Below, piece by piece: positions 12,414 through 17,545 of a DNA stretch of 38,219 nt (positions within the stretch are counted from its first letter, which is position 1; every line of letters begins with the position of its first letter). The stretch covers positions 1-38,219 of the forward strand of contig CAIQRS010000047.1 in NCBI GenBank assembly GCA_903874275.1. Direction: 5' to 3'. Made by a program: the position numbers and the translations under genes. The stretch is from an uncultured Anaeromyxobacter sp. (GTDB lineage: Bacteria; Myxococcota; Myxococcia; Myxococcales; Anaeromyxobacteraceae). Below the pieces are notes generated by a model, which did not search any database, had not been told where the DNA came from, and saw only the letters and a program-made list of their open reading frames with translations.

Positions 12414-13556
12414 TCAGGGTGCCGAGAGTGCGGTCCGGACCTTGCCCACGACCCCGGGCAGGATCCGGAGCACCTGATCCACGTCGGCGTCGGTGCTGCT
12501 CCACCCCAGCGAGAGGCGCAGCGTGGCGCGGGCCTCCTCCACCGTGAGTCCCATCGCCGAGAGCACGTGGGAGGGGGTGGTGGAGCCGGAGGTGCAGGCG
12601 GCGCCGGCGCTGGCGCAGATGCCCTCGAGGTCGAGGGCCATGAGCATGGTCTCCCCGTCCGACCCCGGGAAGGTGATGGAGAGCGTGTTGGGGAGCCGGT
12701 CCGCCCCGGCGCCGTTCACCCGGGTGCCGGGAAGCGCGGCCACGAGGCCGGACTCCAGCCGGTCGCGCAGGCGGCCCACCCGCTCCAGGTCCACCGGGAG
12801 CGCCGCCACCGCCGCCTCGAGCGCGGCCGCCATGCCGGCCACCCCGGGCAGGTTCTCGGTGCCGGCCCGGCGTCCCCTCTCCTGGTGGCCGCCGGCGATG
12901 GGCGCGAGCCGGACGCCCGGGGCGATCCAGAGGGCGCCGGCCCCGCGGGGGCCGCCGAACTTCTGCGCGGTGAACGCCGCCAGGTCCACGCGCAGCGAAG
13001 GCAGGTCCACCGGGATCTTCCCGGCCGCCTGGACCGCGTCGCAGAAGAGGAGGGCGCCTCTGGCGTGGGCGAGGTCGGCCGCCTCGGCGACGGGCTGCAG
13101 GACCCCGGTCTCGTTGTTGGCGAGCATGCAGCAGACCAGGGCCGTCTCCCCTCCGACGGCCTGGCGGAGCACCTCGAGGTCCACGACGCCGCGCCCATCC
13201 ACCGGGACGACCTGCACCGGCGTGCCGCCGCGGGAGAGTTCCCGCGCCAGGTCGAGGACGCAGGGGTGCTCCACCGCGGTGACCACGAGCCCGGTGCGCC
13301 CGGCCGGGGCCGTCGCCAGCGCTCCGCGGATGGCCAGCATGGCCGACTCCGTTGCACCCGAGGTGAAGACCAGGTCGCGGGGGTGGACGCGCAGCGCCGC
13401 GGCCACGCGCCCGCGCGCCCCGTCGAGGATGGCCCGGGCGTCCCGCCCCGCGGCGTGGACCGAGGAGGGGTTGCCGAAGGCCCGGAGCGCTCCGAGCACG
13501 GCCTCCTCGGCCTCGGGCCGGACGGGGGTGATGGCGTTGTGGTCGAGGTAGGTCAC
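12414..13556 (-). CDS. Cysteine desulfurase, NifS/IscS family
   Basis: 380 residues from GTG 13556, which overlaps the DHH gene stop by four bases (GTGA). Removes sulfur from cysteine as an enzyme persulfide for Fe-S or thio-cofactor assembly. Visible: N-terminal TYLDHNAITP, FTSGATES, H97 in AVEHPC, ANNETG, D173 in FCDAVQ, the PLP lysine K199 in TAQKFGGPRGAGAL, HQERGRRAGTEN, and the persulfide cysteine C321 in AACTSGST with the flexible-loop follow-on PSHVL typical of group I. The residue before the PLP lysine is Gln (Q198); the family almost always has His. No iscU or iscA adjoins it; its partners are nfo and a DHH protein, so it may serve a non-housekeeping role. Confidence 0.93.
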   Translation of the reverse strand: MTYLDHNAITPVRPEAEEAVLGALRAFGNPSSVHAAGRDARAILDGARGRVAAALRVHPRDLVFTSGATESAMLAIRGALATAPAGRTGLVVTAVEHPCVLDLARELSRGGTPVQVVPVDGRGVVDLEVLRQAVGGETALVCCMLANNETGVLQPVAEAADLAHARGALLFCDAVQAAGKIPVDLPSLRVDLAAFTAQKFGGPRGAGALWIAPGVRLAPIAGGHQERGRRAGTENLPGVAGMAAALEAAVAALPVDLERVGRLRDRLESGLVAALPGTRVNGAGADRLPNTLSITFPGSDGETMLMALDLEGICASAGAACTSGSTTPSHVLSAMGLTVEEARATLRLSLGWSSTDADVDQVLRILPGVVGKVRTALSAP

Positions 13557-14656
13557 ACCAGCCGTCGCGCCCGGGAGCCCTCGACGCCGAACTCGCGCAG
13601 GAACGACCGGAAGACCCGGCGCATCACGCGGCTCCGGACCGCCTGGGTCATGCCCTTCACCGGGAGTCGCGCGCCGGCCATCGACCCGTGCCCTCCGGCG
13701 GTCCCGCCCTCGGGCTCGATGACCTCGCGGACCATCTTGCCGGCGTTCATCCGGCGATCGCGGGTGCGCACCGAGAAGTAGAGGCTGCCGCGGTACTCCC
13801 CCACGGCCAGCGACCACTTCACGTCGCCCATGGAGAGGAAGCGGTCGGCCACCTCGGCGACCAGGTCCGGGTAGTAGACCTTGCCGAGGTCGCAGATCAC
13901 CGCGTCGCCGTGGAGCCGGGCCTTCTCCACCGCCGTGTGGAACAGGCGAAAGTAGTCCTCGGGCAGCCGGGGCCGCTCGATCATCGAGAGCGCCTGGGTG
14001 TCGGCCTTGGGGAAGAGCCAGAGGTAAGCCTCGATGTCCGGCTCCGTGGTCTCCCGCTCCAGGTCCCGGGTGTCCGACTTGATCCCGTAGAAGAGGGCGG
14101 TGGCGATGGCGGGAGGGATCTCCAGGCCGCTGGCCCTCAGGTAGTCGGTGACCACGGTCGAGGTGGCGCCGGTGTCGCGCCCCACGTCGGTGACCACGGC
14201 GAGCCGGGTCTCCGGCCGCTCCGGGTGGTGGTCGATGACCACGTCGGGGAAGTGGGCCGCCGGCAGCGAGTGGTTGCCCTGCTCCGGCTGGGTGTCCACC
14301 ATGGCGATGAGGTCGAAGTCGGCGAAGGACACGGTGGAGAGCGGCACCACCGGGAGGCGCAGGACCTTCACCAGCGCGCGGTTCTCGGCCCGGCCCACGA
14401 TGCCGCCGTAGGCCACCACGGCCTCCACCCCGGCCATCTGCCCGAGCAGCCAGGCCAGCGCCACCCCGGAGGCGATCGAGTCGGGATCCGGGTTGTCGTG
14501 GGTGAGGATGAGGGCCCGGCGGTGGCCGCGCGCGAAGGCGACGAGCCGGTCGAGCCGCTCGCGGACCTCGCTGGCCGAGCTTCCGCCCAGCCGGACCCGC
14601 GTCCGGGTTCGCACGGCGGGGGCGCGCTTCCGGTGGATGGCCTGTTCGCGCGTCAT
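13553..14656 (-). CDS. DHH/DHHA1-family phosphoesterase (NrnA-like)
   Basis: 367 residues. The DHH domain has motif I HDNPDPDSIASG (H53, D57, D59), motif II MVDTQ (D121), the family DHH triad in VVIDHHPE (D142-H143-H144) and motif IV RDTGATST. The C-terminal DHHA1 substrate domain ends with GGTAGGHGSMAGARLP, the GGH signature. Relatives degrade short oligoribonucleotides, linear dinucleotides such as pGpG, or 3'-phosphoadenosine phosphate using Mn2+. The basic N-terminus (about 25 residues) is not part of the fold. Start ATG 14656 overlaps the nfo stop by four bases (ATGA), and its own stop overlaps the cysteine desulfurase start. The family is clear; the exact substrate is not. Confidence 0.9.
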   Translation of the reverse strand: MTREQAIHRKRAPAVRTRTRVRLGGSSASEVRERLDRLVAFARGHRRALILTHDNPDPDSIASGVALAWLLGQMAGVEAVVAYGGIVGRAENRALVKVLRLPVVPLSTVSFADFDLIAMVDTQPEQGNHSLPAAHFPDVVIDHHPERPETRLAVVTDVGRDTGATSTVVTDYLRASGLEIPPAIATALFYGIKSDTRDLERETTEPDIEAYLWLFPKADTQALSMIERPRLPEDYFRLFHTAVEKARLHGDAVICDLGKVYYPDLVAEVADRFLSMGDVKWSLAVGEYRGSLYFSVRTRDRRMNAGKMVREVIEPEGGTAGGHGSMAGARLPVKGMTQAVRSRVMRRVFRSFLREFGVEGSRARRLV

Positions 14657-15477
14657 CGCCGCAGCGACCGGAGCAGGTCGAGGTTCTCCCGGAAGCGCAT
14701 CTCGGTCTCCAGGAACCCGGGGAGGGTGGCGAAGCGGGGGTCGTTCACGAGGAGCCGGAAGGGCTCCCGCCCCAGCGCCCCCTCGCCGATGTGCTCGTGC
14801 CGGTCCACCCGGCAGCCGAGCGGCTTCTTGCAGTCGTTCAGGTGGAAGGCCGAGAGGTGCTCGAGGCCGATGACCTGGTCGAACGCGTGGAAGGTGCTCT
14901 CGTAGCCGGCCTCGCTCCCGAGGTCGTAGCCGGCCGCGAAGGCGTGGCAGGTGTCGAAGCAGACCCCCACCCGGCGCCGCGCCGCGCCCGGGATGGCCGC
15001 CCGGATGGCAGCGACGTGCTCGAAGCGCCACCCCAGCGAGTTGCCCTGGCCGGCGGTGATCTCGACGAGAAGGCGGGCCTTCCCCTTCACCCCGTCGAGG
15101 GCCCGCTCCATCCCCTCGGCCACGAGCTTCAACCCCTGGTCCACGTCCTCGTTGCTGCCGGGGTGGAAGACCAGGAAGGGGATGCCCAGCTGCTCGCAGC
15201 GGCCGAGCTCGTCCTCGAGCGCCCCCCAGGACCTCTCCCGGAGCTCGGGGTTCCCGGAGGCGTGGTTGGCGAGGTAGATGGAGTGGGCGGCCGAGGTCAT
15301 GCCGGTCCGCTTCGCCTCGGCGCGGAAGCGCTCGATCTCCTCGTCCTCGATGGGCTTCGACGCCCAGCCGCGGGGGTTGCGGACGAAGATCTGGATGGCC
15401 TGGGCGGTGTCCTGCTCGGCCCGCTCGAACGCGCGGGATACCCCGCCAGCGATGCCCTCGTGGGCGCCCAGGATCAT
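14653..15477 (-). CDS. nfo: Endonuclease IV (AP endonuclease)
   Basis: 274 residues from ATG 15477, which has GAGG nine bases upstream; an in-frame ATG at 15492 lies before that Shine-Dalgarno and is less likely. Cuts 5' to abasic sites and removes 3'-blocking groups in base-excision repair. The tri-zinc ligand set of the TIM barrel is recognisable: AHSIYLAN, VFHPGSN, LVEITAGQGNSLG (Glu), CFDTCHAFAAGYD (Asp and His), AFHLND (His), RHEHIGEG (His) and the late Glu in GFLETE. The last motif is normally LETP; here Pro is replaced by Glu. It heads the nfo, DHH, cysteine desulfurase operon, each pair joined by a four-base overlap. Confidence 0.95.
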   Translation of the reverse strand: MILGAHEGIAGGVSRAFERAEQDTAQAIQIFVRNPRGWASKPIEDEEIERFRAEAKRTGMTSAAHSIYLANHASGNPELRERSWGALEDELGRCEQLGIPFLVFHPGSNEDVDQGLKLVAEGMERALDGVKGKARLLVEITAGQGNSLGWRFEHVAAIRAAIPGAARRRVGVCFDTCHAFAAGYDLGSEAGYESTFHAFDQVIGLEHLSAFHLNDCKKPLGCRVDRHEHIGEGALGREPFRLLVNDPRFATLPGFLETEMRFRENLDLLRSLRR

Positions 15478-15546
15478 TGCGGGGCACCTCATACACCAAC
15501 GGAACCCCCACCGCCACGGGCAGCGGGACCGCCGGGAGGGGGCCGG

Positions 15547-16317
15547 CTACCGGGCCGAGCGGCGCGCCCGGGCCGGGGCGGCCTCGGCGAAGTGCTTCTC
15601 GGCGTGACCGAGGGCGTTGTCCATGGCCTCGATCATGAGGTCGCGCAGGACGGCCTCGGGCATCTTGAAGGAGTCGTAGTAGCGCTGCCGGTCGATCGAG
15701 TGGATGACGCAGGGGAGGAACCCGCCGCGGATCAGGAAGAGATTCGCAAGCAGTCGCGCCACCTTGCCCGATCCGTCGGTGTACGGGTAGGCCTGCATGA
15801 ACCCGTGCTGGAGACGTGCCGCCTGGACCACCGGGTGGGCCTTGCGGAAGTCTGCCGTGTCGGTGGCGTCGACCACCTTGGTGAGCAGCGCCGCGATCCG
15901 GGGGGGCTGGGCGATCTCGTGGAAGTAGGCCCGGTGGAGGGGCATCTCCTTGCGAAACTCGGACGGCCCCTTGCTCTGGATACCCCTGTAGAGCGTCTCG
16001 TGGACCTTCTTCACGAGCCCCAGCGTGACCTTGACCTTCTTGGCGCCGGCCTCGGAACGGACCAGGTCGATGGCCGCCTTGTGGTTCCGGACCTCCTGGA
16101 GGACCCCGATGACCATGGCATCCGCGACTGGCTGCGGCGTGGCGAGGCCGACCACCAGCTCCTGGACGGTGTAGATGACCCCTTCAAGGGCGTTCTCGTG
16201 GTACATCCAGGAGAGTTCGTACTTCTTCAGGAAATCATCAGCGAGATCGGTATCTTCCCGCATCCTCTCGTTGAGGTCCTGGGTGCGATCGTCGAGGTCG
16301 AGGTAACGCGTGCGCAT
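15547..16317 (-). CDS. Fic-domain protein with altered catalytic motif
   Basis: 256 residues. Fic enzymes transfer AMP or other phosphate-containing groups to target side chains using HPFx(D/N)GNGRxxR. Here the aligned motif (residues 177-188) is YPYTDGSGKVAR: the catalytic His is Tyr177, Phe is Tyr179, the second Gly-Asn pair is Gly-Ser (S183) and the first Arg is Lys185; the final Arg188 and the DG remain. The N-terminal helix carries ENALEG (41-46), resembling the inhibitory (S/T)xxxE(G/N) helix of class II Fic proteins, with Glu45 kept. The flap region HRAYFHEIAQPPRI is also recognisable. It stands alone between the terminator of ilvE and nfo. Codon choice near its start is less GC-rich than its neighbours, hinting at transfer. 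Probably not a standard AMP transferase. Confidence 0.85.
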   Translation of the reverse strand: MRTRYLDLDDRTQDLNERMREDTDLADDFLKKYELSWMYHENALEGVIYTVQELVVGLATPQPVADAMVIGVLQEVRNHKAAIDLVRSEAGAKKVKVTLGLVKKVHETLYRGIQSKGPSEFRKEMPLHRAYFHEIAQPPRIAALLTKVVDATDTADFRKAHPVVQAARLQHGFMQAYPYTDGSGKVARLLANLFLIRGGFLPCVIHSIDRQRYYDSFKMPEAVLRDLMIEAMDNALGHAEKHFAEAAPARARRSAR

Positions 16318-16351: not shown

Positions 16352-16377
16352 GAAAAGAATCGGGCCAATTGGGCCCG
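16352..16377 (-). terminator. Intrinsic terminator after ilvE
   Basis: Minus strand: CGGGCC-CAATT-GGCCCG (16361-16377) followed by ATTCTTTTCG. It ends the kinase-ydfG-glnE-ilvE operon. The AT-rich stretch just past it (TTGGCC, 16 bases, TATCAA) may serve as the promoter of the Fic-like gene, which starts 35 bases further on; that part is weak. Confidence 0.75.
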
Positions 16378-16432: not shown

Positions 16433-17545
16433 CTATTCCCCGGGCCGCGCCGTGGACTCGACGCGCTTCGCCAGGAAGAGCCACCCCTCCGGCGCCGGGC
16501 GCTTGCCGCGCTGGATCCCGGTGAGGGCCTCGTAGACCTTGCGGGTGTGGGGGCCGATGTGGCCGTCGCCAACCCGGAGCTCGGTGGCGTCGTCGAACAC
16601 GTAGCTCCCCACCGCCGAGACCACCGCCGCGGTCCCGAAGCCGCCGGCCTCGGTGATGGCCCCCGACCGGACGTCGTCGAGGAACTGCTCGACGGGGATG
16701 CGGTCCTGCCTCACCCGCACGCCCAGGTGGCGCTCCCCGAGCTCCAGCACCGACTCGGAGGTGATGGAGCGGAGGATGGTCTCGGTGAACGTCGGGATGA
16801 GGAGCTCGCCCGCGCGGGTGACGTGGAAGTGGTTCATCGCCCCGGCCTCCTCGATGTACGTGTCGGTCACGTCGAGGAAGAGGACCTGGCTGGCCCCGTG
16901 CTCGTGGGCCACGTGGCCCGCCATGAGCGACGCCGCGTAGTTCCCGCCGGTCTTGAATGCGCCGGTGCCACCGGGCGCCGCGCGGTGGAAGCGGCGGGTG
17001 ACGAGGAGCTTCACCGGCTCGCGGAAGCCGGCCGGGTAGTAGGGCCCGCTCGGCGAGAGGAAGACGCAGAAGGTGTAGCGGGAGCTCGGCTTCACTCCCA
17101 GTGAATCCTGGGTCCCGAAGACGAAGGGGCGGATGTAGAGCGAGGCCCCCTCCTGGTGCGGGGCCCAGAGCCGGTCCACGTCGAGCAGCGAGAGGATGGC
17201 CTGGACCTGGTCGTCCTCGGGGATGGGCGGGATGAGCACCCCGGCCCCGGACCGGTTCAGCCGGGCGGCGTTCTTGTCGATGCGGAAGGCGTGGATCTCC
17301 CCGTCCTCGTGGAGGAAGGCCTTGGCGCCCTCGAAGATCTCCTGCGCGTAGTGGAGGGCCACCGCGCCGGGGGCCAGCGCGAGCGGGCCGTAGGGCACGA
17401 TGCGCGGGTCGATCCACCGGCCGTCCACGTAGTCCATGAGGAACATGTGGTCGGTGCGCAGCTGGCCGAAGGGGAGCGGCCCGTCGGGGAGGAAGGGCTT
17501 CTGGCGGCGCGCCGCGCGCGGCTTGAGCTGGTAGCGGATGTCCAT
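16433..17545 (-). CDS. ilvE: Branched-chain amino acid aminotransferase (BCAT, class IV)
   Basis: 370 residues; PLP enzyme for the last step of Leu, Ile and Val synthesis, or the first of their breakdown. Features: YAQEIFEGAKAF, the PLP lysine K198 in GAFKTGGNYAASL, TYIEEAGAMNHF and the phosphate-binding ITEAGGFGTAAVVSAV. Length and motifs match the longer eukaryotic-type BCAT group (K-T-G-G-N-Y) rather than the roughly 310-residue E. coli IlvE. Start ATG 17545 gives MDIRYQLKP. It is the last gene of the kinase operon, 33 bases after glnE, and is followed by an intrinsic terminator. Sharing an operon with glnE links amino-donor use to glutamine synthetase control, by inference. Confidence 0.95.
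   Translation of the reverse strand: MDIRYQLKPRAARRQKPFLPDGPLPFGQLRTDHMFLMDYVDGRWIDPRIVPYGPLALAPGAVALHYAQEIFEGAKAFLHEDGEIHAFRIDKNAARLNRSGAGVLIPPIPEDDQVQAILSLLDVDRLWAPHQEGASLYIRPFVFGTQDSLGVKPSSRYTFCVFLSPSGPYYPAGFREPVKLLVTRRFHRAAPGGTGAFKTGGNYAASLMAGHVAHEHGASQVLFLDVTDTYIEEAGAMNHFHVTRAGELLIPTFTETILRSITSESVLELGERHLGVRVRQDRIPVEQFLDDVRSGAITEAGGFGTAAVVSAVGSYVFDDATELRVGDGHIGPHTRKVYEALTGIQRGKRPAPEGWLFLAKRVESTARPGE

What the first reader, a model, noticed from the sequence alone, without database searches (positions are those of the whole stretch)
15547..16317. Fic-domain protein whose catalytic His is Tyr
The Fic core motif reads YPYTDGSGKVAR (177-188): Tyr for the catalytic His, Gly-Ser for Gly-Asn, Lys for the first Arg. 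Normal Fic chemistry needs that His as base. Yet the frame is intact, the DG and last Arg remain, and an ENALEG inhibitory-helix-like segment is kept, so the protein looks maintained rather than decayed. It may be an inactive regulator, a nucleotide sensor or an enzyme with other chemistry. It stands alone, with its own AT-richer upstream region.
Basis: partly seen in the sequence, partly recalled or inferred. Interest (0 to 1): 0.62.

Follow-up and report, generated by a model that had tools for sequence, protein, structure and literature searches.

The report
Phylum-wide Fic protein lacking catalytic histidine
Nearly every sampled bacterium of the phylum Myxococcota keeps one copy of a Fic protein whose catalytic histidine was lost in a distant ancestor, so it is not a broken copy but a long-maintained Fic relative with a rebuilt active site and an unknown job.

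Summary
The ORF at 15547-16317 (-) encodes a 256-aa Fic-domain protein with YPYTDGSGKVAR in place of HPFxDGNGRxxR. It is not a local mutation. Orthologs occur across Myxococcota: about 174 of 193 genomes searched, including reduced genomes of 1.3-1.8 Mb. In 97 distinct orthologs the catalytic position is Phe (83) or Tyr (14), never His. A small sister phylum (5 of 5 genomes) has Met there. The His-less proteins form one clade (support 100/100), so His was lost before those phyla split. dN/dS is about 0.2, like the neighbouring nfo gene, and gene order is conserved: vertical inheritance under selection.

The model (pLDDT 91) matches human FICD closely (Z 28.9), but the pocket is rebuilt: anion-hole Gly variable, Asn to Ser, adenine-pocket Val/Ile to an almost invariant His in a near-invariant HRxYFH flap, inhibitory Ser/Thr to Asp/Glu. 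FICD without this His can neither add nor remove AMP. Best reading: a non-AMPylating regulator or binding protein; different chemistry is a serious rival. The nearest described precedents are other His-less or motif-divergent Fido proteins (Doc D2, AvrB, BepC). Function is untested. New variant of a known kind.

The parts
15547..16317 (-). His-less Fic-domain protein, 256 aa plus stop
   Evidence: Pfam Fic 53.7 bits; orthologs throughout Myxococcota
15754..15789 (-). active-site loop YPYTDGSGKVAR (residues 177-188), standing where HPFxDGNGRxxR is canonical
   Evidence: sequence; position 177 is F 83 / Y 14 / H 0 of 97 orthologs
15919..15954 (-). flap segment RKEMPLHRAYFH (residues 122-133); R122, Y131, H133 invariant, H128 96/97, R129 91/97
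   Evidence: canonical relatives have VxISGSxH here
16180..16200 (-). inhibitory-helix-like segment HENALEG (residues 40-46); H40 and G46 invariant, position 41 always acidic, position 45 E/D
   Evidence: equivalent to the FICD alpha-inh segment around E234
16361..16377 (-). terminator-like hairpin between ilvE and fic (consensus scan only)
14653..15492 (-). downstream neighbour nfo (endonuclease IV-like; named from the sequence, not by a family search), 57 bp away, part of the conserved order fic-nfo-DHH-nifS in much of the order
13553..14656 (-). conserved neighbour: DHH-family phosphoesterase (ortholog in L140 hits Pfam DHH and DHHA1); start inferred
12414..13556 (-). conserved neighbour: NifS-type cysteine desulfurase (ortholog in L140 hits FeS_nifS); start inferred
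16433..17545 (-). upstream neighbour: class IV aminotransferase (branched-chain type); an ilvE-type gene is an old neighbour of fic in the phylum

Best explanation
The gene belongs to one ancient clade of FICD-like Fic proteins that lost the catalytic His before Myxococcota and a small sister phylum diverged, and it is now a near-core gene of Myxococcota. It does not transfer AMP by the Fic mechanism. The Fic cleft was rebuilt and kept: an aromatic residue fills the His position, the anion hole and adenine pocket no longer match those of AMPylases, and the flap (which in Fic enzymes docks the target backbone) became a near-invariant HRxYFH strip next to an acid-rich inhibitory-helix segment. 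Most likely it works as a non-AMPylating regulator or binding protein that holds a conserved partner segment or a non-adenine ligand in this cleft. Shown here: clade-wide His loss, vertical inheritance, purifying selection, FICD-like predicted fold, loss or variability of canonical nucleotide contacts. Inferred: absence of AMP transfer, and the binding role. Unknown: the partner or ligand.
For: His position F 83, Y 14, H 0 in 97 distinct orthologs. About 174 of 193 phylum genomes have an ortholog (the G058 hit is a canonical paralog), including genomes of 1.3-1.8 Mb. A sister phylum (5/5 genomes) has Met at the same place. The His-less proteins form one clade, 100/100. dN/dS 0.18-0.21 against 0.17-0.24 for nfo. 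Model pLDDT 90.8; FICD Z 28.9, 246 residues at 2.7 A. Mapping onto FICD via the profile alignment and published contacts (PMC4342408): position of anion-hole G368 variable (H, N, G, L, Y, D), N369 to S/T, V316 (adenine pocket) to H in 96/97, N407 (adenine contact) variable, Mg ligand D367 not acidic in about 18 of 97, R371 neither K nor R in about 12 of 97. In FICD, H363A abolishes deAMPylation and H363 is the essential base for AMPylation (PMC8373988). Precedent for a Fic domain with no enzymatic activity found that acts by binding: BepC (PMC8401265, PMC7842960).
Against: Invariant polar residues in the cleft (H40, R122, Y131, H133, R188, acidic 41, Ser/Thr 183) are more than a passive scaffold should need and could mean catalysis. 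S-G-K/R at the loop and the conserved E45-R188 pair could still bind a phosphate. IbpA H-to-A reportedly keeps residual activity (cited in PMC4454073). No partner is identified; the AAA ATPase neighbour is absent from the window's own genome and family. No experiment exists.
Confidence: 0.5

Rival explanations
1. It is an active enzyme with different chemistry. The general base or acid moved from the motif to the flap or inhibitory helix (H128, H133, H40 or the acids 41/45), and the rebuilt pocket uses another donor, as AvrB does with UDP-rhamnose.
For: Ten residues invariant in 97/97, several of them polar and mapping to the cleft. Near-invariant HRxYFH replaces VxISGSxH of canonical relatives. 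Y131, H133, H40, the acidic 41 and Ser183 are kept even in the Met form of the sister phylum. AvrB has a divergent Fido motif, needs no divalent cation and transfers rhamnose (PMC10866546).
Against: H133 is already His in 12 of 14 canonical relatives and H40 in 3 of 14, so these alone are not new catalytic residues. H128-R129 is not kept in the Met clade. Distances in the model could not be measured with the tools given.
Confidence: 0.36
2. It is still an AMP-handling protein: a slow AMPylase, a deAMPylase, or a reader that binds AMPylated proteins without cleaving the bond, as FICD H363A does.
For: E45 and R188 (FICD E234 and R374) are kept. FICD H363A forms a long-lived trapped complex with AMPylated BiP (PMC8373988), so a His-less Fic could be a natural reader.
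Against: Adenine-pocket and anion-hole positions are changed or variable across the family (with contacts from PMC4342408). His is required for both FICD activities (PMC8373988).
Confidence: 0.1
3. It is a decaying or mis-sequenced Fic gene with no function.
For: The motif deviates at several positions.
Against: Clade-wide and ancient, dN/dS about 0.2, kept in reduced genomes, conserved gene order, open frame in nearly all copies.
Confidence: 0.02

Closest known systems
FICD/HYPE (human) and C. elegans Fic-1, AMP transferase / deAMPylase
   Same: Predicted fold over the whole protein including the N-terminal inhibitory-helix segment (Z 28.9, 246 residues, about 20% identity); E234 and R374 equivalents kept
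   Different: No catalytic His, changed anion hole and adenine pocket, new flap sequence, no TPR domain
Class II bacterial Fic AMPylases (YNSNAIEGNTLT ... VxISGSxHxPP ... HPFxDGNGRTSR)
   Same: Nearest sequence relatives outside the clade, about 24-32% identity
   Different: They carry His (13 of 14 examined), Ser in the inhibitory helix, GNGR; they form the other side of a 100/100 branch
Doc clade D2 (Khater and Mohanty 2015, PMC4454073), catalytic His replaced by Gln
   Same: A described Fido clade that uniformly lost the catalytic His
   Different: Doc-type single domain with Qx(F/Y)x(D/E)(G/V)NKR motif; this clade is FICD-like, aromatic or Met, and a near-core gene of one phylum
AvrB (Pseudomonas syringae), rhamnosyltransferase (PMC10866546)
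   Same: Fido fold with a divergent motif; shows that motif loss need not mean no chemistry
   Different: Secreted effector, much weaker structural match (Z about 12), lacks the family's flap and helix features
BepC (Bartonella), Fic domain with non-canonical motif acting by recruiting GEF-H1 (PMC7842960)
   Same: Precedent for a Fic domain working by binding
   Different: Host-targeted effector of another lineage, with its own motif changes

Membership tests
Fic/Fido fold superfamily (Pfam PF02661) | sequence profile match over the curated cut-off | tested here: met
   53.7 bits against cut-off 24
Fic/Fido fold superfamily (Pfam PF02661) | predicted fold matches solved Fic structures | tested here: met
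   AF2 pLDDT 90.8; FICD Z 28.9, Foldseek E 3.6e-10
Canonical Fic AMP transferases | HPFx(D/E)GNGRxxR with catalytic His | tested here: not met
   No His in 97 orthologs; GN positions not kept
Canonical Fic AMP transferases | AMP transfer to protein hydroxyls | not testable with these tools
   needs biochemistry
Class II Fic (own inhibitory helix (S/T)xxxE(G/N)) | Ser/Thr four residues before the inhibitory Glu | tested here: not met
   E or D in 97/97
Class II Fic (own inhibitory helix (S/T)xxxE(G/N)) | inhibitory Glu then Gly/Asn at the N-terminal helix | tested here: met
   E 82 / D 15, then G 97/97; helix region aligns with FICD
Doc, including clade D2 | HxFx(D/N)ANKR-type motif, or Gln in place of His in D2 | tested here: not met
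   F/Y at the position, SGK/R after it
Fic/antitoxin modules | small antitoxin gene next to the Fic gene | tested here: not met
   neighbours are nfo, DHH phosphoesterase, nifS, aminotransferase, AAA ATPase
AvrB-like Fido proteins | inserted domain in the flap hairpin and AvrB-type catalytic residues | tested here: inconclusive
   fold similarity only (Z about 12); catalytic residues not compared one by one
NCBIfam ProtAdlyltaseSoFic / mob_myst_B | score over curated cut-off | tested here: not met
   16 bits against 550; 17.9 against 124.4

The most novel reading that the evidence does not exclude
An ancient, phylum-core Fido enzyme with relocated catalytic residues (flap HRxYFH, with H40 and the acids of the former inhibitory helix) performing an undescribed transfer or hydrolysis on a housekeeping target in Myxococcota.
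Probability: 0.3. Interest if true: 0.85.

Novelty: new variant of a known kind. Interest (0 to 1): 0.62.

Why it matters
Fic genes are usually described as patchy and horizontally mobile. Here one Fic lineage became a near-core gene of a whole phylum after losing the residue held to be indispensable. It gives a large, deep natural data set for what a Fic fold can do without its catalytic His, in organisms with genetics (Myxococcus). It warns that automatic 'Fic family protein, AMP transferase' names are likely wrong for this gene throughout Myxococcota. Knock-out, pull-down and ligand screens would make its role directly testable.

Tried and rejected
Local mutation or sequencing error: rejected, since all 97 orthologs lack His, including those of isolates. 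Decay: rejected by dN/dS and gene order. Toxin-antitoxin module: no small partner gene, core distribution. Mobile or viral origin: no relative in viral contigs; phage and plasmid hits are distant, at 32% identity or less over most of their length, and of the ten fetched nine carry His and one (Mycetohabitans) Tyr. Functional link to the AAA ATPase: adjacent in 81 of 99 genomes that hold both, but missing from the window's own genome and most other classes, so it is not a required partner. A patatin-like protein, an ilvE-type aminotransferase and a response regulator-DUF4388-DnaJ-TPR protein recur nearby but give no mechanism. Literature searches for this family found nothing specific; the library holds open-licence papers only. 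Outside the phylum only about 190 genomes were sampled, so rare members elsewhere may exist; two further hits there at E about 1e-33 to 1e-32 (G325, G363) were read and carry the canonical His motif.

Full report
What was checked. The ORF at 15547-16317 (-) is real, 256 aa, with YPYTDGSGKVAR at residues 177-188 and HENALEG at 40-46. Pfam Fic matches it at 53.7 bits against a cut-off of 24; NCBIfam has no model above its cut-off. The same genome holds several other Fic genes, with canonical HPFADGNGR-type motifs, so the His-less gene is not the only Fic there.

It is a clade, not a mutation. Among 60 relatives, 56 hold a full or partial ortholog with E below 1e-30, at 87% down to 31% identity. 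None of the aligned sequences has His at motif position 1. A profile of 40 orthologs searched against 193 genomes of the phylum matched 175, one of which (G058) is a canonical paralog. Near-complete genomes are positive in about 142 of 149. Positive genomes include four reduced ones, 1.3-1.8 Mb (family f26). Record titles of the closest named loci are Anaeromyxobacter and other Myxococcales, which with the group codes identifies the phylum as Myxococcota; that identification is an inference. In 97 distinct sequences the position is F 83, Y 14, H 0. H40, G46, R122, Y131, H133, P178, G184, R188, R210 and Y213 are invariant.

Outside the phylum. A relatives search that reached about 190 genomes of other phyla gave four matches at E 1e-30 or better. 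Two (G325, G363) are canonical with His. One (G284) is a His-less member with Tyr, split by a contig break. One (G321) belongs to a small phylum in which all 5 genomes hold a sister form with Met at the His position, MPYGRFSGK/RxxR. No relative was found in viral contigs; plasmid and phage hits are distant, and nine of the ten fetched have His.

Tree. With canonical class II relatives as outgroup, the His-less proteins form one clade (ultrafast bootstrap 100, SH-aLRT 100). The Met form is sister to the Phe/Tyr form, whose own support is 93/89. A larger quick tree gives the same separation from canonical Fics and groups sequences largely by bacterial family. One loss of His before the two phyla separated explains the data. 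An independent His-to-Tyr change is seen in a Mycetohabitans plasmid Fic that otherwise keeps PFVDGNGRTGR.

Selection and gene order. Pairwise dN/dS within the genus is 0.18-0.21, close to nfo (0.17-0.24) and ilvE (0.10-0.20). The order fic-nfo-DHH-nifS holds in many families of the order; in some genomes nfo was not detected between fic and DHH. More widely, an ilvE-type aminotransferase, a patatin-like protein and a response regulator-DUF4388-DnaJ-TPR protein recur close by, including in other classes. An AAA-type ATPase (Walker A GPPGNGKT read from the sequence) lies within about 1 kb of fic, usually about 130 bp, in 81 of 99 genomes that hold both, but is missing from the window's own genome.

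Structure and pocket. The AF2 model has pLDDT 90.8 and pTM 0.89. Best matches are human FICD structures, Z 28.9 over 246 residues at 2.7 A, including the N-terminal helix that carries the inhibitory Glu. Residue equivalences come from the profile alignment to FICD and from contacts reported for FICD in PMC4342408: H363 is F/Y; G368 of the anion hole is H, N, G, L, Y or D; N369 is S or T; R371 is K or R in 85 of 97; V316, which lines the adenine pocket, is H128 in 96 of 97; N407, which contacts adenine, is variable; D367 is non-acidic in about 18 of 97. E234 (residue 45, E or D) and R374 (R188) are kept; the Ser/Thr of the inhibitory motif is always acidic. Canonical relatives have VxISGSxH where this clade has PLHRxYFH; the last His (H133) is shared by most canonical relatives and is therefore ancestral.

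Reading. FICD needs His363 for both AMPylation and deAMPylation (PMC8373988), so ordinary Fic chemistry is unlikely (inference). I rank a non-AMPylating binding or regulatory role first (0.5), because the donor-binding features are lost or variable while the target-docking flap is near-invariant. A different chemistry is close behind (0.36), because so many polar cleft residues are invariant and AvrB shows that a Fido protein with a divergent motif can be a glycosyltransferase (PMC10866546). AMP handling in some form is less likely (0.1).

Comparison with the known. The described Fido His-loss clade I found is Doc D2, His to Gln (PMC4454073); the motif groups in that survey all begin with H or Q, so the aromatic and Met groups were not among them. 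BepC is a precedent for a Fic domain working by binding, with no enzymatic activity found (PMC8401265, PMC7842960). I found no paper on this clade, within an open-licence library. It is a member of the Fic fold superfamily, fails the definition of a canonical Fic AMP transferase and of class II inhibition in one residue, and is best filed as a new variant of a known kind.

Noticed in passing
L168 (Mycetohabitans endofungorum megaplasmid NZ_CP062179.1, 211793-212593): A Fic protein with YPFVDGNGRTGR: an apparently independent His-to-Tyr change in an otherwise canonical motif.
   Followed up: partly
L139:4945-6339 (-), L144:4926-6242 (-), L162:4513-5862 (+), L166:7716-9053 (-): A conserved AAA-type ATPase (the one scanned copy, L144, has no Pfam match at E 1e-5) sits next to the Fic gene in 81 of 99 genomes holding both; a second copy, about 46% identical, lies elsewhere in many of these genomes.
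   Followed up: partly
G058 (same order, 9.8 Mb, 20 contigs): One near-complete genome lacks both the His-less Fic and the close copy of the AAA ATPase, keeping only a canonical Fic paralog and the distant ATPase copy; joint loss or an assembly gap.
   Followed up: no
L123-L126 (family f26, genomes 1.3-1.8 Mb): Reduced Myxococcota genomes keep the His-less Fic; in them R129 of the flap is Gly (HGTYFH or HGTYLH).
   Followed up: no
L151 (G033:C3:235289-237148): A different Fic paralog with HPFAVGSGRMGR: Mg-binding Asp to Val and Asn to Ser while His is kept.
   Followed up: no
L005 and L007 (G000:C139): Two neighbouring Fic-domain stretches in the window's own genome, with HPFADGNGR and HPFQDGNGR motifs.
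   Followed up: no
L157:9573-11603 (-): A response regulator-DUF4388-DnaJ-TPR fusion protein recurs near the Fic gene in several classes of the phylum.
   Followed up: no
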